Source: a virus. Taken from it: a DNA stretch of 20,415 nucleotides. A model generated the notes under the pieces. The model had not been told where the DNA came from. It made no database searches and worked only from the letters and a program-made list of their open reading frames with translations. The stretch lies in the IMG/VR virus record IMGVR_UViG_3300011013_000121, positions 1 to 20,415 of that record. The stretch is one strand, 5' to 3'. Made by a program: the position numbers and the translations under genes. Below are positions 1,370-18,966 of the stretch, in pieces. Position 1 is the stretch's first letter. Each line of letters begins with the position of its first letter.

Positions 1370-1659
1370 AAGGGAATATAAGGATTGTTTCTGATGGGAC
1401 TTCTGATGGAACGAGAATAGAAGACGCCGAAACTGGGCGCGCGCTACCTGCTGTAGAGATGGTCAGCTGGTCTATCTCTGCGGAGACACAATTGGCTGAT
1501 GCTGTAGTCGTATTTGCTAATGTACCGTGTGATATAATCATTCCTCAGACTGTGCAGGATGGTGTTACTTTTGAGGTTGAGGAAGATGAGACTGTTACTA
1601 AGCGACTACCTGTTGATGAGTTTTTAAAGATATGGCAGACGAACAAGAAGCAGGACTAA
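1366..1659 (+). CDS. Conserved-type small phage protein, unknown function
   Basis: A 97-residue, beta-rich, acidic protein. It opens with IRIVSDGTSDGTRIEDAETG followed by an aromatic VEMVSWSISAE strand. I associate this opening with a widespread family of short phage proteins of unknown function. The central VVVFANVPCDIIIP segment is hydrophobic strand rather than a membrane helix. It starts inside the stop of the previous gene (ATGA) and overlaps the next gene by 28 bases. No catalytic motif is visible. The gene call is secure; the family placement is from memory of its opening pattern. Confidence 0.8.
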   Translation: MKGNIRIVSDGTSDGTRIEDAETGRALPAVEMVSWSISAETQLADAVVVFANVPCDIIIPQTVQDGVTFEVEEDETVTKRLPVDEFLKIWQTNKKQD

Positions 1660-2426
1660 CTCCGATTGATTCTCGGCAGGGGCGTGATAAGCGCGCGGCT
1701 GCTGCCTTGTCTATTGGTAACTCAGACCCCGAGTACGATAAGTACGTTAGCAGGCTCTCTAAGAGGAAGGTGGAGCGGATTCACCGGACTGCGGGGAACT
1801 TGAAGCATGGTCTTCATACGGCTGCGCCGTTAACTTGCACAGGTCCCAGGAAGTGTCCCTTTATCAACCATTGCCCCATCCCCGAGAGGGATGAGGACGG
1901 CTCTCTTAGCTTCGGGCCTCTTACTGACTATCCGATGTATAGGCCGTGTATTCTTGAGAAGCTTAAGATGGAGCAGGCGATAGTTGATTACATGGAAGTC
2001 CTGAAGATAGACCCGGATGACCCTATAGAAGTCGCTTTAGTTAGTGACTTGGCAGTAATTGATCTCTACAAGATGAGAGCCTCTATGGTTCTTAGTTCTG
2101 GTGACAGAGATGGAGAGGGTAGGGATTTGCTGCGTATAGATAACACTGGTTATTCAGAGCATGGTCAAGCTGCGACTAGCAGTCAGTTGCACCCAGCTTT
2201 CCAGGCTATAGAGTCACTGGAAAAGCGTCGACTTAAGGTGCTAACATCTCTACAAGCTACAAGAGAGAAGAAGTTTGAGAAGGCTGTTAAGCTTGGTACC
2301 AAGTCAGAGGATTCGAGGATTCTTGTAGAGCTTAGAGCTGTTAAGGCTGCTTTGACTGCTGCTGCCAAGCGAAGCGCAGATACTCCCGTTCCTCTCCTTG
2401 AGGAGCCTATGTACTTGGATAGGTAA
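1632..2426 (+). CDS. Putative terminase small subunit with Cys cluster
   Basis: 264 residues. The N-terminal third is basic. It is followed by a cysteine cluster, C69-x5-C75-x5-C81 with a further C106, likely to bind zinc or possibly an Fe-S cluster. The C-terminal part is helical (about 185-250, ending in a likely coiled coil after LHPAFQAIESLEKRRLKVL). That helix pattern, and a position upstream of the terminase large subunit at the front of the packaging operon, suggest a small terminase subunit that would recognise phage DNA. However, 4.4 kb separates it from the large subunit, and no classical DNA-binding helix-turn-helix is obvious. Alternatively it is a metal-binding regulator. The start at 1632 has only a weak RBS (AAAG) and relies on coupling with the overlapping upstream gene. 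The stop overlaps the next start as TAATG. Confidence 0.45.
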   Translation: MADEQEAGLTPIDSRQGRDKRAAAALSIGNSDPEYDKYVSRLSKRKVERIHRTAGNLKHGLHTAAPLTCTGPRKCPFINHCPIPERDEDGSLSFGPLTDYPMYRPCILEKLKMEQAIVDYMEVLKIDPDDPIEVALVSDLAVIDLYKMRASMVLSSGDRDGEGRDLLRIDNTGYSEHGQAATSSQLHPAFQAIESLEKRRLKVLTSLQATREKKFEKAVKLGTKSEDSRILVELRAVKAALTAAAKRSADTPVPLLEEPMYLDR

Positions 2427-5400
2427 TGCCCGGATACACTGACTTACTGAAGAACGCAGTTCTTCTAGATACTGAGACCCTGGGTTTAGCCCGGGGTTCT
2501 CCTATTCATGAGATTGCTTTTTATGATTTTGAAAAGCAGTCAGTATCTGAATACCTTATCAAGCCAAAAATGGTTCAGACGCAGGGTATTCGTGACCAGG
2601 ACGTAACCAGGTTAGTTAGTTCGGCCTATGATACTCACACTGGTGTCCAGTTTGATAACTGGACAAAGGCTATCCAAGAACAGATCTTCATGGAGACCAA
2701 GCGACGTGTCTCTCGTGAAAGAGTTATGGATACGCTCAGGTGGTCGAACCCTTTCCTTTATGAAGCTCTACAAGCTGGCAAACACGAGTATTTGTTAGGG
2801 AAGAGGGACTCTGCTGCCAAGACAGCAGCTCGTGTTCAGAACATGGCAGTGACCAATGCTCAGTTGGGTATGGAAACTACCATGGAGGCTATGCTTGGCT
2901 CTAAGAAGGCTCCGGGTATTCTCTCTCAGAAGTTAGCTGGGAAGGTTGTCTGGGGAGCTAACGTAGCTTTCGAAGCCAAGATGTTTGGCGCCCAGATTGG
3001 CGCCATGGTAGACGATGTAGATGGGTTTAAAGGTACCCTCGAAACTATCTCTCCAAGGTCTCCAGATCCGTTCTATGTGACAGGAGTAGAAGTAAACCAG
3101 GCTAGAGCTTATGCCTTGCAGACTGGTGACTGGACTGGTGTTTGGAAGGCTTACAAAAGCCACACCCCGAAGGCTGGGGAGACAGTAGTCAGAGATATTC
3201 TAGACGTTACCAAAGCTTTTATGTCTTATGGTCGGAAGAATGACTTGCTCAAGGGTGGTAGTAGTTACTTCGGTACTGGCATTGACCTCACTTCTCGGCT
3301 CTTAGGCTCCCTGGAGGATGATCCTAAAGAAGCTCTCAGAAGATTGACTACCGCTGAGGTTCACAGAGCAGCTGAAGATGTTGCTATCAGTGAGAAATAT
3401 GTTTTAGAGAAGATGCTCCACTACACAGAGGTGATGGAGCATGTAACTGACGGTACGGCTCAGGGCGCCAAGTACTTGCAGATGGCAAAAGAGGGTTCTG
3501 GCCCCCTGGCCAAGATCGCAGCTTACTTTGCCAGGCTTGAGAAGTTAGCTCCTGAGCTACAGAGAACAAACTTGGTAAAGCGTCTTGTTCGGGCTCAGCA
3601 AGACTTACATCAAGAGGGTAAGACCTGGCAGGTGTCAGGGGTAGAGAGTGTATACCACGCGCCCCAGATTACCCCGGAGGGGAAAGAGGTAAGAGTAGCC
3701 CGGGTTTCTCATGCGAAAGAATCCTTCTCCAACATGGATGATTTTGTTAAGTTTCTCAAAGCTGACTCTAACTATGCAGATTTTAGCAAGGTAGATCCTG
3801 GTACGGGCGAGTCTGTAATTGATGCTGAGTATAGGAAACTAGAGCAGGTAGTCAGTAAGAGTGAAGATCCTCTTAAAGCTCTAAATATCTACTCTCACAA
3901 TGCTGGTGACAGATTAGGTTCTTTCTTTAAGGAAGACGCAGCCGAAAGGCTACTGGACATACGAGGAACACAACACCTACAGAGGATGACAGCACCTCAC
4001 CTTCACCACAAGGCAAAGGACACCCTCATCAAGGGTGTTCAAGGGATGTCTACTGCGGGGCAGAAGTTCGCATGGGCTGCCGGGGGTATGGCAGCGATAG
4101 GCGCTATCTGGTCTCTTGGTGGGGGTAGAAGCCAGAAAGACAGGCTACCAAGCTCTATCGTCGCTACCAACTACCAAGAGTGGTTTGAAAGACAGCAGCC
4201 CCAGAACAACGGACTAGCTACTCAGGGTATGAGTAAGCAGTCTCGTAGATACAGAACTGACTTTGGATCTCCGTATCAAGGCCCTGTGACCAGTGCCAAT
4301 GTCTTAGCTGATCAAGAACTACTACAGCGTCGAGAGAAATGGCTTAGGGCTCAATACGGGGCTAAGCACTATCACCCACAGCACGGACTGTTTGGTATCT
4401 TTGGTCCTTTCAAGAACGTAAACGTACTGGGGCGTCGAGGGTATTCTTACTTCCAGGGTGGCACAGCAGTGGGTGCGGAGGAGTACCAAGGACTCAAGGG
4501 TTCTAAACTGAAAGCTATTGACCTGTCCAGAGGGAATTGGAAAGCGACCGTAGAGGATGCGGATACCATCTCTGTGAAGAGGGGTGGTGTCAGGGGTGCT
4601 ATCTCCTCCTTCTTTGGGTTCAACCGTAGCTATAGCTTCCGTATGGCCGGTATAGACTCTACTGAGACCTCTCACGGTAGCACCAGCTACCATGCCCCCC
4701 AGCCCTATGCAGAGTCTGCTAAAGAGGCTTTGAAGAGCCTTATCAAGGGCTCTAAGAATCTTGAGCTTGTGTTCAACCCAGAAGATACGACCTATGGTCG
4801 TATGATGGGTGCTCTGATCAAGGACGGTCAGAACCTTAACTTCCAGATGGTACGACAGGGTGTAGCTGCTCACTTGCCTTACGGTAAGTCTCGTGATGCT
4901 ATGATTGACTATCAAGCCATGAAGAAGATGGAAGAGGCTGCCTTCGCAGGTAACAGGGGTATGTGGATTACACCCTGGGCTCGGTCTTTCTATGATGTGA
5001 CGGAGGCTAGTGGTAGAAGGCTTACCTTTAACACTCTAACTAACGCAGGTAAGATTGCAGAGAATGCGGGCACCATGTCCATGATCTCTTTAATGGAACA
5101 AGCACAAGCACAAGGTCAGTACTCTAATGTGCATGCCCAAGCAGCCACTGCCTTAGGTAATGTGTATCAGGTTGGGAAGGATAAGGTTCAACCCTTCATG
5201 ATGGAGATGGGTGGTGCCCATTATGCACCATATACAGGTCAGCTCATGTTAGAGACCTCTCAGTTCATGAAAACCAAGGGTACTAACGTCAATTCGAACA
5301 AATACTCGCGTAGCAAAGGGTACGGGGCCTATGATGGGGGCATGGCCCTGGATTCCATGGGAACCACTAACAGTGTTTGGACTAAACGTAGACTAAACGC

Positions 5401-5524
5401 CTATGAACTGTATAATGTCAACAGAAGAACCCAGCAGCACTCACAAAGAGCTCAAATGGCCTCAATGCAAAGAGCTGCAAACAAAAGGTTTGGTCAAAGC
5501 CCAATCGGGCATCACCAGATGTGA
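2426..5524 (+). CDS. Two-nuclease protein: DEDDh exonuclease plus SNase
   Basis: 1032 residues. The N-terminus shows a DEDDh exonuclease fold. Exo I is D15-T-E17 with H28-E-I after it. An Exo II-like NVAFEAKMF has E183 where Asp is usual. Exo III is H313-x4-D318. A long helical region follows, then a hydrophobic glycine/alanine segment near 543-566 that could enter a membrane. Residues about 700-860 form a staphylococcal-nuclease domain. Its catalytic set looks intact: Asp in VEDADT, R739, D744, E747 and R792 in the TYGR motif. The C-terminal 160 residues are rich in Q, N and M. It is coupled to the gene before it (TAATG), and the next gene starts 7 bases after its stop. The position between the terminase genes suggests a virion or packaging-linked nuclease, perhaps acting on host nucleic acid on entry or on packaging ends. 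Role and substrate are inferred. Confidence 0.75.
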   Translation: MPGYTDLLKNAVLLDTETLGLARGSPIHEIAFYDFEKQSVSEYLIKPKMVQTQGIRDQDVTRLVSSAYDTHTGVQFDNWTKAIQEQIFMETKRRVSRERVMDTLRWSNPFLYEALQAGKHEYLLGKRDSAAKTAARVQNMAVTNAQLGMETTMEAMLGSKKAPGILSQKLAGKVVWGANVAFEAKMFGAQIGAMVDDVDGFKGTLETISPRSPDPFYVTGVEVNQARAYALQTGDWTGVWKAYKSHTPKAGETVVRDILDVTKAFMSYGRKNDLLKGGSSYFGTGIDLTSRLLGSLEDDPKEALRRLTTAEVHRAAEDVAISEKYVLEKMLHYTEVMEHVTDGTAQGAKYLQMAKEGSGPLAKIAAYFARLEKLAPELQRTNLVKRLVRAQQDLHQEGKTWQVSGVESVYHAPQITPEGKEVRVARVSHAKESFSNMDDFVKFLKADSNYADFSKVDPGTGESVIDAEYRKLEQVVSKSEDPLKALNIYSHNAGDRLGSFFKEDAAERLLDIRGTQHLQRMTAPHLHHKAKDTLIKGVQGMSTAGQKFAWAAGGMAAIGAIWSLGGGRSQKDRLPSSIVATNYQEWFERQQPQNNGLATQGMSKQSRRYRTDFGSPYQGPVTSANVLADQELLQRREKWLRAQYGAKHYHPQHGLFGIFGPFKNVNVLGRRGYSYFQGGTAVGAEEYQGLKGSKLKAIDLSRGNWKATVEDADTISVKRGGVRGAISSFFGFNRSYSFRMAGIDSTETSHGSTSYHAPQPYAESAKEALKSLIKGSKNLELVFNPEDTTYGRMMGALIKDGQNLNFQMVRQGVAAHLPYGKSRDAMIDYQAMKKMEEAAFAGNRGMWITPWARSFYDVTEASGRRLTFNTLTNAGKIAENAGTMSMISLMEQAQAQGQYSNVHAQAATALGNVYQVGKDKVQPFMMEMGGAHYAPYTGQLMLETSQFMKTKGTNVNSNKYSRSKGYGAYDGGMALDSMGTTNSVWTKRRLNAYELYNVNRRTQQHSQRAQMASMQRAANKRFGQSPIGHHQM

Positions 5525-5531
5525 GGTATAG

Positions 5532-6479
5532 ATGTCTAGCGAAGTACTGAAGGCTGCAATGGGCACAGTCGGGAAGGGTCTTGGCTTTATGCAGAGATGG
5601 GGTCCTGGAGAGACTCTTGCTCGGGGTGCTCTTGGTATGGGAGGTATTATCCCCGCAGGAGTGATGACAGCTACGACCGCAGGTGGTGCTGTGTCTGATA
5701 TGAATATCTGGCACGGTTATACGGTTGATGCTGGGTTTGATAAGTACGGGAAGATGGGCCACCTTGAAGCTAAAGGTATGCCTAAGACTTGGGGTGCCCG
5801 AGGCGCAATCGGCATGCAGTTGGTGGCCCCTATAGTTTCTGGCTACACAATCTACCAGGGCTATCAGCAAGATGGTGTTAGCGGAGCTTATGATGCGGCG
5901 ATCTTAGACCTCGGTGTCAACGCTGCATACATCAAGCATGGATTTAAGACTGCAGGTGGTTTAGGTACTGGCTTTAAGTCTACTAAGGTGGGTATAGGGG
6001 CTCTGGGTACGTTCGGTAGGATTGGTGGGGCTACTGTAGGTGGTAGTATCGGTCAAGCTATGGGGCAGGCTACAGGAATACCATTTGCTGGTACTGTAGG
6101 TGCTTTGGTCGGGAGTTCTTTTGGTGCTGCTCCAGTACAGGGTGCTAAGCAGGGAATGGCTGCCCTAGCAGCTTCTCCGCGTTTACTTGCTGCTGGTTTG
6201 GCTGGAGCTGCGGTGTTGGGGACTGCTACAGTGGTTAACCAGGCGGCAAGAGGTGGTTATAGTGTTCTTAAAGCTGGGTACCAGCACAAGAGAATGCAGA
6301 GAGGAATCCAAACTAGTGGAGACCTGTCCGCTTTTATGACTCAAGGAGCTATGACTATGAGATCTAGAGCAGTTTCTAATATTGCCAAGTCTCACATGAA
6401 TGCAAGAAGTGCTTTGGGAAGAGAAGCCTCTTTCCTTCATTCCTCTGCTAATCGCTCCTATCACTCTCGGTACAGGTAA
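5532..6479 (+). CDS. Glycine-zipper protein, possible membrane or ejection factor
   Basis: 315 residues, very rich in Gly and Ala. Several GxxxG-type runs occur, notably around residues 150-205 (GRIGGATVGGSIGQAMGQ and GTVGALVGSSFG), and a hydrophobic Ala/Leu helix lies near 216-237. The C-terminus is basic with many Ser and Arg. Such glycine zippers occur in membrane-inserting and pore-forming proteins, including some phage internal virion proteins, but no specific family is recognised. Its RBS (GAGG) sits in a stop-to-start junction identical for 16 bases to the one at 20164. A second protein of the same style is encoded at 9145, after the terminase. I am confident of the gene and unsure of its function. 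Confidence 0.7.
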   Translation: MSSEVLKAAMGTVGKGLGFMQRWGPGETLARGALGMGGIIPAGVMTATTAGGAVSDMNIWHGYTVDAGFDKYGKMGHLEAKGMPKTWGARGAIGMQLVAPIVSGYTIYQGYQQDGVSGAYDAAILDLGVNAAYIKHGFKTAGGLGTGFKSTKVGIGALGTFGRIGGATVGGSIGQAMGQATGIPFAGTVGALVGSSFGAAPVQGAKQGMAALAASPRLLAAGLAGAAVLGTATVVNQAARGGYSVLKAGYQHKRMQRGIQTSGDLSAFMTQGAMTMRSRAVSNIAKSHMNARSALGREASFLHSSANRSYHSRYR

Positions 6480-6903: not shown

Positions 6904-9148
6904 AAAGAGCGTTAAGGCGAAGCTCTATACAACCAACGAGTACGGTATAGAGCACCAGGACCCCGAAGCGGTTCTTACCGAGAGAGAGACTAAGTGGCTC
7001 GGTAAGAACTATGGGGTTCGTACGGATGTGCATCGCACCTGTATTAACTGTCAGGCTCGACAGCTCTTCAAATACAAAGGGATGAAAGACAAGAAGGGTA
7101 AGCCTATTAAGGACTTCAGAGTCCCGTGTAGCTTTATTCCTAACAAACTACCCTCTGGTTCTCGGGCAGCTTTGGAGCAGTTAGTCCATTCGGGCATGGA
7201 CAGAGACAGAGCTATGATGGTTATCAAGGCTCCTATCGATCCGGTGGCCTGGTGCGAACTTATGTTCGGCTTCAATGATAAGACTCCTGAGTGGAGGTTG
7301 AGGTCTTATCAGAAAGAGCAGATTAGATGTACTTCTAGACAGTTGGTTATCAGAGAGGGTCGCCGCTCTGGTAAGTCGTTCGCTATTGCTGTTAAGTTGC
7401 TCTACTACATCTTCAACATGGAAGTTTCGAAGGGCTTCAACTCTGAGGGGAAGGAGATTATTGTCGGTCCCGAGATCATGATCGTAACGCCGTTCTCTTC
7501 CCAGGTTGCAAACATCTTTGATGAGCTTCAGAAGCTGCTCCGTCGTAATGAAGAGTTGATGGAGGAGGTGTCTTCAGGTGTCGGGGGGAATCTCTTCACC
7601 AAGACCCCCTATCATTTAATGAGGTTTAAGAACAAAGGGATCATCAAGGGCTTTGTCTCGGGTGTCGGTACTAAAGAAGACGGTTCTGGTGGTGGTACTA
7701 TTCGTGGGCAGAACGCACACATCATCTACACAGATGAGCTGGACATGATCCCCTCTTCGATTCTGGAGAAGGCTGTCTTACCTGTTCGACTCACCTATAG
7801 TAAGGGTGTCTTTATAGGAACAAGTACCCCTATCGGGAAGCGAGATCGTTTCTATAGGTGGTGTCTTGAATCTCCTAAATGGAAAGAGGACTACCTCCCT
7901 TCTACCGTTCTCCCCAACTGGGACGACCACAAAGATGAGGCTGAGTCTGAGGGTACTTCAGAGACGTTCTCTGCTGAGTATTTAGCTGAGTTCATTGAAG
8001 GTGGCCATGGTGTGTTCAAGCCTTCGTATGTTTACGGAGCAATGGCAGACTTCACCTATGACCAGACTAGATTCTCCGGTTGGTGGAGGGAGTATGCTCG
8101 GGTACCGAATCCAAGCAAGTTAATGAAGGTTGTCGGTATCGACTGGAACAAGAATGCTGGTACTGAATTTTGCGTAGTTGCTTATGACCCAGCTACACAC
8201 AGGTGGGTTGTCTGCGAGACTATCAATGTGTCCGCGAGTGAGTTCTCTGGTCAGAAATGGAAAGAAGAAGTTGTTCGGCTTAACTACAAGTGGAAACCAG
8301 ACTACATTTATGCTGATGAAGGGTATGGCCACAACATCATTGAAGACCTTAAACTTTGGGCATACCAACTCCAGAGTAAGAAAGGTAAGACCTTAGAAGA
8401 TCTCCAGACCGTTCGTCTCGTTGATAGACTAATTGCCTATAACTTCAGCAGCAAGGTGACTCTGCGCAGCCCTGTAGATGGTACTGAGATTCAGAAACAT
8501 AGTAAAGAGTTCTTGGTTGAGAATGCTATTCGTGTCTTTGAGGAAGGTCGTATATGGTTCTCTGAACAAGATCTAGTCATGAGGAAAGAGCTACTAAACT
8601 ACGTTGTTCTTCGTTTTACCAATACGGGTCGTCCAGTCTATGGTCCGGAGAACTCAAACATTGGCGATCACAGACTTGATGCGCTCATGCTAGCTCTCGG
8701 TGGGCTTTATCTCCAGAACTCTCTCTACGCTGACAAGGCTAGCGGGACTTCGACTCCTTCCTTCCTCTCGAAAGAAAGGTTAGATAAGCGCTCTTTCCTC
8801 AAGCAGAGAGATAATGAGAAGAGCGAAGCTGCTAAGCTGATCTCTTATCTTGAGAAACAGCCCGCTACTGTCCCCGGAGCCCTGACTGTACTTGGGATAG
8901 AAAGACCGGGTAGAATCGAGCCAACACCTGCTTCTAACAAGGTTGCCCCGAGAAGACGGGGCAAGAAGAGTAACGAAGAAGGCCAACAAGTGTTTGATTA
9001 CTTTGACGAGAGAGCTCACAACACAGCAGGGTTTGACTGGGACCAGGAAGACCTTTACAAGCGTCCTGCTGTCAGAAGAGTTCAGAAGCGAGCACCTCGG
9101 AAAGGTCTTAGAGAACGAGCAAAACGTATTTTAAGGAGACGTAGATGA
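6869..9148 (+). CDS. terL: Terminase large subunit (packaging ATPase and nuclease)
   Basis: 759 residues. It would pump DNA into the procapsid through the portal and cut it. Walker A is G164-RRSGKS, Walker B ends in D289-E290 (HIIYTDE), and a coupling motif follows (IGTSTP). The RNase H-like nuclease acids are D425 (GIDWN), D483 (YADEG) and D600/D604 (DHRLD). Unusual additions are an N-terminal CxxC pair with a later Cys (near 52-90) and a C-terminal tail of about 110 residues ending in many Arg and Lys. The frame opens at a GTG at 6869. An ATG at 6878 (MPRIPRI) is an equally plausible start, and neither has a strong RBS because the gene overlaps the one before it. The stop overlaps the next start. 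Confidence 0.95.
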   Translation: MTLMPRIPRITEKSVKAKLYTTNEYGIEHQDPEAVLTERETKWLGKNYGVRTDVHRTCINCQARQLFKYKGMKDKKGKPIKDFRVPCSFIPNKLPSGSRAALEQLVHSGMDRDRAMMVIKAPIDPVAWCELMFGFNDKTPEWRLRSYQKEQIRCTSRQLVIREGRRSGKSFAIAVKLLYYIFNMEVSKGFNSEGKEIIVGPEIMIVTPFSSQVANIFDELQKLLRRNEELMEEVSSGVGGNLFTKTPYHLMRFKNKGIIKGFVSGVGTKEDGSGGGTIRGQNAHIIYTDELDMIPSSILEKAVLPVRLTYSKGVFIGTSTPIGKRDRFYRWCLESPKWKEDYLPSTVLPNWDDHKDEAESEGTSETFSAEYLAEFIEGGHGVFKPSYVYGAMADFTYDQTRFSGWWREYARVPNPSKLMKVVGIDWNKNAGTEFCVVAYDPATHRWVVCETINVSASEFSGQKWKEEVVRLNYKWKPDYIYADEGYGHNIIEDLKLWAYQLQSKKGKTLEDLQTVRLVDRLIAYNFSSKVTLRSPVDGTEIQKHSKEFLVENAIRVFEEGRIWFSEQDLVMRKELLNYVVLRFTNTGRPVYGPENSNIGDHRLDALMLALGGLYLQNSLYADKASGTSTPSFLSKERLDKRSFLKQRDNEKSEAAKLISYLEKQPATVPGALTVLGIERPGRIEPTPASNKVAPRRRGKKSNEEGQQVFDYFDERAHNTAGFDWDQEDLYKRPAVRRVQKRAPRKGLRERAKRILRRRR

Positions 9149-9678
9149 TAGGTACGTTAATTAGCGAGGTGGCCGGGGAGACCTGGGGAGCGGCTGCGAC
9201 GAATCTTGCAAAGCAATTTGGTGGGAGTGCTACCTCAGCGGCCAAAGCAGCTTCCGGTATTTCTCCCCAAGCTTTTGTTCAACAAAACATGCCTGCTACC
9301 GCGTTTGCTCATAGAGGCTATGGTGGGCTCATGGGTGTAGTGGGCGGGGCTATGACAGGCGGTATTGCTAGCTATGCTACTGGCGGGGAGTTCCATCGTG
9401 GAGCTTTCGCTGGTGCTATAGGTGGTGGCGCTATGGGCTTTGGTATGGGGAGGCAGGTTGTGTCTCGTGCTGGCCGTGCGTTGGGAAGGGGTGCTAACAC
9501 TATGGGCAAGGCCTCCTTTAGTACAGGCATGACCAAGGTCGGCAATCTCATGGAGTCAAAAGAAAGCAGAAGATTGATGTTCGGTAGTGGCGCTCTCTTA
9601 GGCGGGATTATGTTCGGTGGAAGAAGGAACCACAGCCGTGGTTTCAATCAGAATCGAGGCAATCGCTTCGGGAGGTAA
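9145..9678 (+). CDS. Second glycine-zipper protein
   Basis: 177 residues, rich in Gly, Ala and Met. Two hydrophobic glycine-zipper segments lie near 54-72 (YGGLMGVVGGAMTGGIASYA) and 81-100, with a shorter one near 146-160 (LMFGSGALLGGIMFGG). It ends in a basic Arg/Asn tail, NRGNRFGR. Its style matches the glycine-rich protein at 5532, and both flank the terminase. It could insert in membranes or form part of an ejection channel, but no family is recognised. The start has a strong RBS (AAGGAG) and overlaps the terminase stop (ATGA). Confidence 0.75.
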   Translation: MIGTLISEVAGETWGAAATNLAKQFGGSATSAAKAASGISPQAFVQQNMPATAFAHRGYGGLMGVVGGAMTGGIASYATGGEFHRGAFAGAIGGGAMGFGMGRQVVSRAGRALGRGANTMGKASFSTGMTKVGNLMESKESRRLMFGSGALLGGIMFGGRRNHSRGFNQNRGNRFGR

Positions 9679-11092: not shown

Positions 11093-12628
11093 ATGCCAAT
11101 TAATAGAGATCATCCTCAGATCTACGAGCTCTTAGGGTTGATAATAAACGAGTACGAGGAGCTAGCTATCAAGGGACAAACCCGTGAGGGGATTATGTCC
11201 GTGATGAATGCTCCTCTTACAGGTATGGATATGGTTCTTGATGGAGCCAAGGACACTCTTACGCGTGTTTTGGACACGCGTGTAAAGCCTAACTCAAGTG
11301 CTGATGTTGACCCAGTAGAAGTGTCTGTTGTTGACCGTCCCGGGGAAGATCCAGACGCAGATCCAGCTCCAGAGATACCTCAAGTCCCACAGGTATCTGT
11401 TTCTGGTGGGGTTCAAGCCGACGCAGACTTGATTGCGATGCTGGACTCTACAGAGGATGGGCTCATCACTAAAGCTCTACAAGAGTGTTTAGGGTGTGAC
11501 CTTAGGCTGTCGTTTGATTGGCAATTGAAGCCAATCGATTTACTGGGACCTATCGCGGACATGATAGGCCAAATCAACGCTGCCCTTGACCAGTTGTGGA
11601 ATAACCTGGACCCTTTCAAAGCCGCTCAGGGTTTCTGCGAGAACATGAATGACTTCTCGTTGATATGTATCCCTGACTGGATTGCAATGCTCATGGCTCT
11701 GAAGATGCTTCTTCGGCGCTACATGACGTTCTCTCTTAATCTAAAGCTTGATTGGACTGTTATTCTCGGTCCTTTACTCAAGCTGATCATTGAGGCTATA
11801 ACTTCTCTTATCAACGAGATTGCAGGAGTAATTGTAGCTCCTCTCGATTGTGCTATTAGTGCCTTGGAGGTAATAGAGAAACTTGGCAGAGAAGCCAAGG
11901 ACCTGGCTCTACATGCTGATGCTTTCGCTGATCACCTGGTAGATCGGAACCAAGAATTGTCTGAGGGCAATATCCTAGGTGAAGATCCCATTGATTTCAT
12001 GTCTAAGGATGTGACCTGGGACGTAGATGAAGACGCAGAGGCTTTCGATCTCGGCCAACTAACAACTACCCAGAGGCAAGCCGGGGCAACCAAGAGAAAG
12101 GATGCCTTCTCCTTCCCAAGTGGCTTTGAGCTGTCCAGCAAGAGAGGTCTCCCCGATTCCCTAAAAGATCCAGAGTTCCTACAAACTCCGTTTGTTACTA
12201 AGCTTCGCGTCTCGGTTGAAGATGCAAAAGAGTATATTATGGAGCTTGTCCGCAAGCTTAACTACTCTCTGCGTAGTATAAACTCTCTTGTAGGTGGAGG
12301 ACTCTCTCTCCAGTTAGGTTCGTTGGGCCTGCTCCTGTTCATCAAGGACATCATCGCGCTTTTGATGGTCATCATTAGAATGATACAATCTCATTCGGTT
12401 CAGCCAGATGACTGGTGTCAGTACTTCCAGGATAACCCTCAGGTTCTAGATGCTGAGTTCCGACCCTTGCTTGGGATAGGGGTTGAAGCAGAGGGTACAG
12501 ATACTTTAGTATTTACGAGGGGCCCTGACACACATGTAGTTAGGACTTGCTCCAATGAGAACTCATCGGTCGATTCCAACTTGTTAAGTCAGTGGGTTGC
12601 AGACCTTAATTCGGGGAGTGGTTCCTGA
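11093..12628 (+). CDS. Hydrophobic structural-type protein before portal
   Basis: 511 residues. The N-terminus is followed by an acidic, proline-rich linker around 66-105. Hydrophobic helices then appear near 192-210 (IPDWIAMLMALKMLL), 221-258 and 403-432 (the last ending LLLFIKDIIALLMVIIRMI). Paired cysteines lie near the first (ECLGCD, CIPDW). Long amphipathic-to-hydrophobic stretches suggest a virion protein that reaches a membrane or packs in the head or connector. It sits immediately upstream of the portal (TGATG overlap), so a connector or internal head role is plausible. I do not recognise the family. Confidence 0.6.
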   Translation: MPINRDHPQIYELLGLIINEYEELAIKGQTREGIMSVMNAPLTGMDMVLDGAKDTLTRVLDTRVKPNSSADVDPVEVSVVDRPGEDPDADPAPEIPQVPQVSVSGGVQADADLIAMLDSTEDGLITKALQECLGCDLRLSFDWQLKPIDLLGPIADMIGQINAALDQLWNNLDPFKAAQGFCENMNDFSLICIPDWIAMLMALKMLLRRYMTFSLNLKLDWTVILGPLLKLIIEAITSLINEIAGVIVAPLDCAISALEVIEKLGREAKDLALHADAFADHLVDRNQELSEGNILGEDPIDFMSKDVTWDVDEDAEAFDLGQLTTTQRQAGATKRKDAFSFPSGFELSSKRGLPDSLKDPEFLQTPFVTKLRVSVEDAKEYIMELVRKLNYSLRSINSLVGGGLSLQLGSLGLLLFIKDIIALLMVIIRMIQSHSVQPDDWCQYFQDNPQVLDAEFRPLLGIGVEAEGTDTLVFTRGPDTHVVRTCSNENSSVDSNLLSQWVADLNSGSGS

Positions 12629-14394
12629 TGTATGCATCGTTAATTACCTCTGCTCTATCTCGAATGGAGGATCGGCAGGAGCGTATTGGCCAGGAGGATA
12701 AGAAGAGTCTCCAAAACTCTCTCTTGATCCACAAGGTGAATAGCCGAGCCCTTTCCTACACTGAGAGACATAGGGGGAACTGGTTCCGTCCTGAGTTTGA
12801 TTTTGATGAGATCCAGATCGCCCAAAGCACTGATGGGTATCTTGCTCGTGCAATCCAAAAGAAGGTTAACCGAGTTATTACTTCTGGTTGGGGTTGGACT
12901 GGTAAGAGTACTGAGACAGTAGAATATATTAAGATGCGTATTGCTCGGATAGAGTGGTCAAGCCAGTCTCCGTTTGTACAGCTGATAGTTGCATCTTTCC
13001 AGGACATGTTCCGATACAGCAACTGTATTTGGGTTAAGGTGCGTGATAATAAGCGGTCTGCAGGTTCAATTCGACGAGACTTCTATGGGACGATGATTGA
13101 TCCAGTTGCAGGCTATTTCATCCTACCTATGGAGACACTTGAGTTCCAAACCAAAGCCAATGGCGAGATCAAGCAAGTCCTTCAAAAACTTCCCTCTGGT
13201 AGGAAGAAGCAGTTCAATCGTAAAGATATCATTCACTTTTACGCGAACAAGAATCCTGGGTTTGCTACTGGTACTCCAGAGATGTTGCCAGCGCTTGATG
13301 ACATCGCACTACTGCGGAGGATTGAAGAGAATGTAGAGGACCTTATAGAGACCTCCCTCTTCCCAGTCTTCCACTACAAGGTTGGTAATGATAAGTTCCC
13401 TGAGAGACGTGGTACTGATGGTTACAAAGAGACCGATGTCGTTAAGGCTAATATCGAGTATATGCCTGCTGGAGGAGTATATGTCTCTGACCACCGGCAT
13501 GAGATCTCCGCAATTGGCTCTGAAGGTTCAGCTCTTAGGATTGACTACTATATACAGCACTTCAAAAATCGAGTCTTTGCTTCGCTAGGTGTCTCCGGGA
13601 TTGATCTTGGAGAAGGTGGTGATGCGAACCGGAGCACTGCCAGCACTCTTAGTAAGGGTATGCTCATGGATGTTGAAGCCATGACTATCCTCTTCAAGAA
13701 TTTTGTTGAGTTCTTTGTGGTGACAGAGTTGCTGCTTGAGGGTGGGTACAATCCCTTTGATGCTGAGCAAATGGTTCATATGAAGTTTGGTGTGATTGAT
13801 AAGGATTCCCGTCGTGCAGATGAGAACCAGGTTATCCAACTCTTCCAGGCCAACCTGAAGACTTACTCCGAGGCACGCGCAGCCCTTGGTGATCCCCCAG
13901 TTGATGAAGCAGACTTTGATGACCTACACCACAAGCTCTTTGCTGAGCCTACGAATCTTATCCGGGGTTTAGGTCCCGGGACTGCTGCTTCTGAAACACT
14001 GGCTGAGCACAAGGCGTCTAACATCTCCCCTGCTGCAGTGAAGAAAGAGAAAGCTGCCCAAGAAAAGGCAGAGAAGCAAAGAAACAACACAGCAACAGGT
14101 CGACCAGGGAAGACATCCGGGGACAAGACTAAAGCAGTTTCGGGTAACAAAGCCAAGCCCGCGAACCAGCATGGCTCCAGACAGAGCGCGAAGACAACCC
14201 GTGATGTACTAGTAAAAACTAGGGATGGTAGCGAGTATCACTTGACTTGCGATGATTCTTTGTCCGATGATAAGCTCCAATCATGGATTTCCATAGTCAA
14301 AGACCGATATTCACTTGTGGCAGATAGCGGAATCAAACTGAGAACTGTTGCTGACTCCCTCAAGTGGCGTTTAGAGGCTCCTACGAATGGCTGA
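12628..14394 (+). CDS. Portal protein
   Basis: 588 residues. Portals form the dodecameric DNA-entry vertex and bind the terminase and the neck. The evidence is position, length and sequence style. The N-terminal region has RAIQKKVNRVITSGWGWTG. A middle strand-rich part has DPVAGYFILPMETLEF and KDIIHFYANKNPG. A typical portal helix region runs near 332-365 (ANRSTASTLSKGM onward). The C-terminus is extended: a Lys/Ala-rich linker (about 460-520) and then a compact segment 522-588 containing TRDVLVKTRDGSEYHLTC. It overlaps the hydrophobic protein before it (TGATG), and its stop overlaps the start of the protease. Confidence 0.85.
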   Translation: MYASLITSALSRMEDRQERIGQEDKKSLQNSLLIHKVNSRALSYTERHRGNWFRPEFDFDEIQIAQSTDGYLARAIQKKVNRVITSGWGWTGKSTETVEYIKMRIARIEWSSQSPFVQLIVASFQDMFRYSNCIWVKVRDNKRSAGSIRRDFYGTMIDPVAGYFILPMETLEFQTKANGEIKQVLQKLPSGRKKQFNRKDIIHFYANKNPGFATGTPEMLPALDDIALLRRIEENVEDLIETSLFPVFHYKVGNDKFPERRGTDGYKETDVVKANIEYMPAGGVYVSDHRHEISAIGSEGSALRIDYYIQHFKNRVFASLGVSGIDLGEGGDANRSTASTLSKGMLMDVEAMTILFKNFVEFFVVTELLLEGGYNPFDAEQMVHMKFGVIDKDSRRADENQVIQLFQANLKTYSEARAALGDPPVDEADFDDLHHKLFAEPTNLIRGLGPGTAASETLAEHKASNISPAAVKKEKAAQEKAEKQRNNTATGRPGKTSGDKTKAVSGNKAKPANQHGSRQSAKTTRDVLVKTRDGSEYHLTCDDSLSDDKLQSWISIVKDRYSLVADSGIKLRTVADSLKWRLEAPTNG

Positions 14395-17661: not shown

Positions 17662-18966
17662 ATGCATCTCAAGCTAAGAGACAATAAGGAACTCACTCTA
17701 CCTGACGATCGTCGGCAAGCCGCTAACGTTCTTGCAGACCTGCTTCGGAACCAGGGAAACCTGGCCGACCAGGGCGTTAAGGTAGAATGGTCTGACTTTT
17801 GTAATTACCTATCCCCACGCAACAAGGATGCCGTTGCTTCGTCTGAGATTCGTCCACTACTCCAGTCTTCGCTGGAGGTAATCATCCGTGAGCCTATTGA
17901 GCCGCTGATGGTGCTGGCGAGCCTCTTCGACAAGGTGCAGTCCGAGGGTCTCTCGACTCAGGTCCTGGCTGGTGCAATCGGTGCTGTCACTGCTGGTGAC
18001 ATCCCTGAGCACGGTCCGTACCCAGAAGTCATGTTCCAGATTGGTGGAGCACTCCAGACAGCAGTCATCGGGAAGTCCGGTCTAGCGGCCAGCTTCACTG
18101 ATGAGGCTCTCCGGTACTCGACCTGGGACATTATGTCTCTGAACCTACGTGCCATGCGCGCTGCCCTACTCCGTCACAAGGAGCAGAAGGCTGCAGCATT
18201 CCTACGTAACCTAGGGACTGAGCTCTTCAACAACCGTACCCCAGCCACTTCGCTCTTCGGTGTTTGCACCGGTCGCGGTATTGACCTCGCAGCTAACGGC
18301 TCGATGTCTATCGATGACCTGTTCCGGGCCATGGCGCATATGTCTGAGGAAGGTTTTCATCCTGACACTCTTGTCATCAACCCACTGTTCTTCTACATGT
18401 TCCTGCAGGATCCAATCCTACGTAACATGATGCTAGCTCATGGTGGTGGTTCTTACTTCGGTCGTTGGAACGGTACTGCCGGTCCTCGTGATCCTTGGAG
18501 TAACGGCGCGATGGGCGCGATGGGCCCCAGCACTGGTAACAAGATCACCCCAACTGGCGCAGCTAGTGGTGAGTCGGCGACTGGTATCTCTGGTCGTGAG
18601 CACGGTATGACCGCATCTCCACAGATTCCTGGCTACTTCCCATGGCCATTCCGGGTTGAGGTCAGTCCTCTAGTACCATTTGATGCTGAGTCTGGTCTTG
18701 GTGACATCCTGCTCGTTAGTTCGGGTGATGTCGGCTACGAGCTACAGGACGAAGAGATGACTCAGGTTGAGTGGCGTGATGAGAACGTGGATGTTGTAAA
18801 GGTCAAGCTCCGTGAGCGTTATGCCTTCGCGATGAAGCACGAGGGTCAGGCAGTCGGCGTCATGAAGAACGTGAAGCTCGATCGCAACTACTTCGACGGT
18901 ACAGTCCGCGCAGTAGATAGTACTGGTCTAAGCGCAATCAGTGCTACCGCTACGGTGCTCTCCTAA
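17662..18966 (+). CDS. Major capsid protein (HK97-fold type)
   Basis: 434 residues. It would form the icosahedral shell. Call based on place (after the protease and decoration gene, just before a strong terminator), length, and features such as an N-terminal helical arm, an Ala/Arg helix (LNLRAMRAALLRHKEQKAAAFLRNLG), DTLVINPLFFYMFLQD, Gly-rich loops about residues 260-315, and a C-terminal YAFAMKHEGQAVGVMKNVKLDRNYF. Codon use is the most C-rich and restricted of the window, typical of an abundant structural protein. The RBS GGGAG lies seven bases before the ATG. A family search should confirm it quickly. Confidence 0.85.
   Translation: MHLKLRDNKELTLPDDRRQAANVLADLLRNQGNLADQGVKVEWSDFCNYLSPRNKDAVASSEIRPLLQSSLEVIIREPIEPLMVLASLFDKVQSEGLSTQVLAGAIGAVTAGDIPEHGPYPEVMFQIGGALQTAVIGKSGLAASFTDEALRYSTWDIMSLNLRAMRAALLRHKEQKAAAFLRNLGTELFNNRTPATSLFGVCTGRGIDLAANGSMSIDDLFRAMAHMSEEGFHPDTLVINPLFFYMFLQDPILRNMMLAHGGGSYFGRWNGTAGPRDPWSNGAMGAMGPSTGNKITPTGAASGESATGISGREHGMTASPQIPGYFPWPFRVEVSPLVPFDAESGLGDILLVSSGDVGYELQDEEMTQVEWRDENVDVVKVKLRERYAFAMKHEGQAVGVMKNVKLDRNYFDGTVRAVDSTGLSAISATATVLS

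What the first reader, a model, noticed from the sequence alone, without database searches (positions are those of the whole stretch)
2426..5524. Exonuclease and staphylococcal-nuclease domains in one head-operon protein
One 1032-residue protein carries a DEDDh-type exonuclease at the N-terminus and an SNase domain with an intact-looking catalytic set, separated by a long helical region with a hydrophobic segment. I know of no standard head protein with this pair. It may be ejected into the host or act on DNA during packaging.
Basis: partly seen in the sequence, partly recalled or inferred. Interest (0 to 1): 0.65.

Follow-up and report, generated by a model that had tools for sequence, protein, structure and literature searches.

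The report
Two-nuclease protein in phage head operon
A family of uncultivated large phages carries, just before its DNA-packaging gene, one long protein with two different DNA-cutting enzymes, in a position where more distant relatives carry other enzymes, which suggests (untested) a virus-borne toolkit delivered into the host with the phage DNA.

Summary
Window 2426-5524 encodes 1032 aa with a DEDDh-like exonuclease (residues ~4-345), a weakly hydrophobic A/G-rich segment (~548-566) and an SNase domain (~705-850; Pfam PF00565, E=3e-15). This is no chance pairing: 58 non-redundant homologs at ~22-45% identity keep both catalytic sets nearly invariant. One departure: the ExoII Asp is Glu in this protein and most relatives (Asp in a few). 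Three relatives carry an intein inserted exactly after that ExoII residue. The AlphaFold model of the exonuclease domain is confident (pLDDT 93) and resembles DEDD exonucleases, though weakly by E-value; the phage ME3 protein in the same locus matches the whole model well (E=2e-8).

Followed outwards, the gene is a conserved slot (g264 - THIS - g315 - TerL - ... - portal). The hydrophobic segment plus a TDFGSP[YW]xG motif persists in nearly all members, while enzyme cargo changes in divergent phages: Cas4-like PD-(D/E)XK, Bud32/ABC1-like kinase, HExxH-bearing domains. I read it as a polyvalent-protein-like effector, probably packaged in the head and ejected with DNA to attack host nucleic acid (inferred, ~0.5). 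A packaging/head-completion nuclease is the main rival (~0.27). No virion data exist.

The parts
2426..5524 (+). two-nuclease protein, 1032 aa, whole ORF
   Evidence: homologs at 69 viral loci; AF2 mean pLDDT 81
2435..3463 (+). DEDDh-like exonuclease domain (residues 4-346) with long insertions between the motifs
   Evidence: (pLDDT 93, pTM 0.92)
2468..2476 (+). ExoI motif D15-T-E17
   Evidence: D15 51/51, E17 50/51
2960..2974 (+). ExoII motif N179-V-A-F-E183 (Glu where DEDD exonucleases have Asp); insertion site of inteins in L046, L087, L127
3362..3379 (+). ExoIII-epsilon motif H313-RAAE-D318
   Evidence: 55/55 for both
3464..4030 (+). middle region, helical with a long two-stranded element (400-434)
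   Evidence: poorly conserved (mean 0.30)
4067..4123 (+). A/G-rich weakly hydrophobic segment (residues 548-566), present in every family member measured
4256..4285 (+). signature TDFGSPYQGP (residues 611-620)
   Evidence: F613, S615, Y617 57/57; occurs in one to several copies in divergent members
4538..4975 (+). SNase domain (residues 705-850), catalytic D713, R739, D744, E747, R792
5003..5521 (+). conserved C-terminal tail ending SPIGHHQM (family: SPIGHHRM)
1632..2426 (+). g264, conserved upstream neighbour with a Cys motif in many homologs (C.GP.KCPF); intein-like insert in ME3
5532..6479 (+). g315, conserved downstream neighbour, 34% Gly+Ala with a hydrophobic segment
6869..9148 (+). terminase large subunit
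   Evidence: phrog_2 E=4e-31
12628..14394 (+). portal
   Evidence: phrog_9232 E=3e-47; 33% to Bacillus phage KLEB27-3
14387..16240 (+). putative prohead protease/scaffold
   Evidence: phrog_18299 E=0.0016
17662..18966 (+). major capsid protein
   Evidence: PF25209 E=1e-11

Best explanation
The protein is a two-nuclease effector made late with the head proteins, packaged inside the capsid and ejected with the phage DNA. The Gly/Ala-rich hydrophobic segment, the TDFGSP[YW]xG unit and the conserved tail form a constant chassis for loading or ejection; the enzymes are cargo. In the host, SNase would nick nucleic acid and the DEDDh-like exonuclease would digest from the new ends, degrading host DNA or RNA, or competitor DNA, on entry. 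Shown by sequence: two intact-looking nuclease sites, a fixed locus in the head operon, a constant chassis with varied cargo. Inferred: presence in virions, ejection, target, and how the phage's own genome is spared.
For: Both catalytic sets nearly invariant in 58 homologs whose domains are otherwise poorly conserved. Same slot between g264 and g315/TerL in about 40 loci, and in most divergent relatives where it could be tested. Cargo varies while hydrophobic segment and motif remain: Cas4-like PD-(D/E)XK in L092/L096 (phrog_1706 3e-17); SNase plus Bud32-like kinase without exonuclease in L155/L163; ABC1-like kinase in L137 (weak); HExxH motifs in L112, L121, L152 (motif only); no SNase in L087. 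Varied enzymes in one polypeptide encoded among virion genes is the pattern described for injected polyvalent proteins (PMC5512222). The downstream neighbour g315 is Gly/Ala-rich and hydrophobic throughout. Only one motif-bearing protein in each of two large contigs scanned, 204 and 192 kb.
Against: No virion proteomics or activity data. The 32-row TerL clade that includes the window keeps exonuclease+SNase almost without exception, more constant than an arms-race effector usually is. The hydrophobic segment is below a TM threshold in many members. A DNase ejected with the genome needs restraint (ions, timing) that I cannot identify. Several cargo identities in divergent members rest on motifs alone.
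Confidence: 0.5

Rival explanations
1. A packaging or head-completion nuclease: the two activities trim or resolve replicated DNA (branches, ends) at the portal during or after packaging, doing the job of the T4 gp4-type nuclease.
For: Encoded close upstream of TerL with portal and capsid genes. ME3, which has the exonuclease part without SNase, carries a gp4/TnsA-like head-closure nuclease next to it (PF08722 5e-14; phrog_218 4e-19), while nine large contigs of the family show none, with ME3 as positive control. T4 gp4 DNase activity is needed for packaging (as cited in PMC7824862). High conservation within the main clade fits a core role.
Against: Cargo in divergent members includes kinase-like and HExxH-bearing domains with no obvious packaging role; the exonuclease is absent in L155/L163, and SNase in L087, L096, L137 and L152. 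The complementary pattern rests on one cultured phage.
Confidence: 0.27
2. A nucleic-acid metabolism enzyme (host genome degradation or recombination late in infection) that is not a virion protein and sits in the head operon only for expression timing.
For: DEDD exonucleases and SNases occur as non-virion phage enzymes; the closest folds are polymerase proofreading domains and T4 DexA.
Against: A fixed head-operon slot through deep divergence, with fused hydrophobic segment, signature motif and conserved tail, is unneeded for a soluble enzyme.
Confidence: 0.15
3. One domain is catalytically dead and serves as a nucleic-acid-binding module (for example the exonuclease with Glu at ExoII).
For: ExoII Asp replaced by Glu in 47 of 50 aligned homologs and in ME3.
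Against: The residue stays acidic; D15, E17, H313 and D318 are 98-100% kept; relatives with Asp exist (L033, L087, L096, L156); inteins, which favour active sites, sit exactly there.
Confidence: 0.08

Closest known systems
Polyvalent proteins of phages and conjugative elements (Iyer et al. 2017, PMC5512222)
   Same: Several enzyme domains in one polypeptide, encoded among virion genes, cargo varies between relatives
   Different: The window protein has two nucleases rather than biochemically disparate activities; in that paper's main text 'staphylococcal nuclease' and 'thermonuclease' do not occur and 'exonuclease' only in a reference; I did not see the TDFGSP[YW]xG unit or the fixed g264/TerL slot described
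Acinetobacter phage ME3 protein ME3_11 (529 aa, hypothetical)
   Same: DEDDh-like motifs with Glu at ExoII, hydrophobic segment, same slot between g264 and TerL, fold match E=2.4e-8 over 549 columns
   Different: No SNase, no TDFGSP motif; a separate gp4/TnsA-like nuclease lies next to it
Staphylococcal nuclease (thermonuclease, PF00565)
   Same: OB-fold domain with the D21/R35/D40/E43/R87 equivalents
   Different: Fused in a 1032-aa phage protein
DEDDh 3'-5' exonucleases (DnaQ/PolIII epsilon) and T4 DexA
   Same: ExoI D-x-E, ExoIII H-x4-D, similar fold
   Different: Glu at ExoII; large insertions between motifs
SNase domain on a baseplate hub protein of BtI1 (relative of phage 0305phi8-36; PMC2147016)
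   Same: SNase fused to a virion protein in a related phage lineage
   Different: Tail hub, not this locus
T4 gp4 / TnsA-like head-completion nuclease
   Same: Nuclease encoded in the head region; proposed rival role
   Different: PD-(D/E)XK fold, single small domain

Membership tests
SNase family (PF00565) | profile match above curated cut-off | tested here: met
   E=3.3e-15, 56.9 vs 21 bits
SNase family (PF00565) | catalytic Asp/Arg/Asp/Glu/Arg set | tested here: met
   D713, R739, D744, E747, R792; 96-98% conserved
SNase family (PF00565) | Ca2+-dependent nuclease activity | not testable with these tools
   needs protein
DEDDh exonuclease family | ExoI D-x-E and ExoIII H-x4-D | tested here: met
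   D15, E17, H313, D318 at 98-100%
DEDDh exonuclease family | Asp at ExoII | tested here: not met
   Glu183 in this protein and most homologs; Asp in L033, L087, L096, L156, L146. Hence described as DEDDh-like, not filed as a strict member
DEDDh exonuclease family | RNase H-like exonuclease fold | tested here: inconclusive
   top PDB hits mostly DEDD exonucleases but E 0.04-0.5; homolog L156 passes PF03104
Polyvalent proteins | several disparate enzymatic domains in one polypeptide | tested here: inconclusive
   two nucleases here; disparate domains only in divergent slot members, some on motifs alone
Polyvalent proteins | encoded among virion genes | tested here: met
Polyvalent proteins | co-injected with DNA | not testable with these tools
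   needs virion proteomics and a translocation assay
T4 gp4-type head-completion nuclease | TnsA-like PD-(D/E)XK domain (PF08722/phrog_218) | tested here: not met
   no such match in P0001

The most novel reading that the evidence does not exclude
A dedicated, exchangeable effector slot in the head operon of a deep lineage of large phages: the Gly/Ala-rich hydrophobic segment plus TDFGSP[YW]xG acts as a portable loading or ejection signal, repeated in proteins with more domains, that delivers interchangeable enzymes (nucleases, kinases, peptidases) into the host.
Probability: 0.33. Interest if true: 0.85.

Novelty: new variant of a known kind. Interest (0 to 1): 0.62.

Why it matters
If the protein is ejected, it would be a virion-borne pair of nucleases acting at the very start of infection, and it would make the sorting of enzymes into phage heads testable through one short motif. 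It also gives a working hypothesis for a locus annotated, where annotated at all, as hypothetical or SNase, in phages known almost only from metagenomes.

Tried and rejected
Single-sequence profile searches for the N-terminal domain were sub-threshold; not taken as disproof because motif columns and fold agree. The single-protein genome-contig search gave no relative and the profile search gave only SNase-domain matches. The TDFGSP motif was sought in other genes: none in the first 95 loci and none besides this protein in two large contigs. The search for PF08722 rang nowhere, controls included, so it was repeated with phrog_218 and ME3 as positive control. PDB searches with the L146 glycosyltransferase-like and L155 nucleotidyltransferase-like segments found nothing useful, and Pfam found nothing for those or for an NlpC/P60-like segment, so these three names are impressions only and are not used as evidence. 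Phage 0305phi8-36 is not in the collection and its virion proteomics paper is not held.

Full report
The observation. The ORF at 2426-5524 encodes 1032 aa. Pfam finds SNase at 738-848 (E=3.3e-15), and PDB SNases match by sequence and fold. The N-terminal domain is not found by Pfam in this protein, so it was tested through relatives. A terminase search brought 28 loci, most with a homolog of the protein; a profile search gave 69 loci. In 58 non-redundant homologs the exonuclease residues D15, E17, E183, H313, D318 are 94-100% conserved against a domain mean of 43%, and the SNase residues D713, R739, D744, E747, R792 are 96-98% conserved against 56%. All five of each set fall among the few most conserved columns (hypergeometric 7e-8 and 4e-5; the homologs are related, so these figures are descriptive). 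The ExoII position is Glu in most, Asp in L033, L087, L096 and L156.

Structure. AlphaFold2 with 50 sequences gave mean pLDDT 81, and the N-terminal domain alone 93. The best PDB matches of that domain are mostly DEDD exonucleases (RB69 gp43, T4 DexA, arenavirus NP) but with E 0.04-0.5. In the viral fold library the full model matches an uncultured phage protein named for SNase only (5e-39) and the 529-aa ME3_11 (2.4e-8), which lies in the same slot of a cultured phage.

Inteins. L046, L087 and L127 carry inteins that begin directly after the ExoII acid (TAFE|C, VGFD|C, APFE|C) and end HN|S or HN|T; they are homologous to one another. PF14890 passes its cut-off in L087 and is below it in L127. 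Inteins favour conserved active sites (general knowledge), so this supports a functional exonuclease site; that step is inference.

The locus. About 40 loci share g264 - this protein - g315 - TerL - small genes - portal - protease. HMMs made from these families recover the same neighbourhood in L127, L137, L146, L151 and L163; in L152 the gene lies upstream of g264. g315 is 21-38% Gly+Ala, often with a hydrophobic segment.

Cargo. The TDFGSP[YW] signature, found in nearly all members measured, and the hydrophobic segment persist while enzymes change: Cas4-like PD-(D/E)XK in L096 (phrog_1706 3e-17); SNase with a Bud32-like kinase and no exonuclease in L163; ABC1-like kinase in L137 (weak); HExxH in L112, L121, L152 (motif only); no SNase in L087. 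Sixteen records tested each carry an SNase match in an open frame of 987-1462 aa; one also has a second, broken one. Each of the two large contigs scanned has one motif-bearing protein. On the TerL tree the 32-row clade containing the window keeps exonuclease+SNase almost throughout, and other cargo sits on long outer branches whose placement is unsure.

Interpretation. A constant chassis plus varied enzymes among head genes is the pattern of injected polyvalent proteins (PMC5512222). The rival is a packaging nuclease: ME3 has a gp4-like nuclease beside its exonuclease-only version, and nine family contigs show none; T4 gp4 is a DNase needed for packaging (as cited in PMC7824862). Neither virion presence nor activity is tested here. 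No paper found in the library describes the pairing, and absence from this open-licence library is not proof of novelty.

Noticed in passing
L093 4078-5370 (ME3_9, g264 homolog): ME3 g264 (431 aa against a usual ~255) ends an insert with FDIEVAANHNFIANNFIVHN|C, an intein-like C-terminus next to the conserved CP motif; annotated as a methyltransferase.
   Followed up: partly
window 1632-2426 and homologs: g264 has a conserved Cys motif (C.GP.KCPF in many homologs), suggesting a metal site; function unknown.
   Followed up: no
window 9145-9678; neighbours of the slot gene in L087, L096, L137: Several small Gly/Ala-rich hydrophobic proteins surround TerL in these phages, as would suit ejection or membrane proteins.
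   Followed up: partly
TerL of L064, L127, L060: TerL of 1162, 1117 and 1086 aa against a usual ~750; likely insertions (inteins?), not examined.
   Followed up: no
L137 880-2595: ORF between g264 and the slot gene looks transposase-like by eye; possible insertion element next to the slot gene.
   Followed up: no
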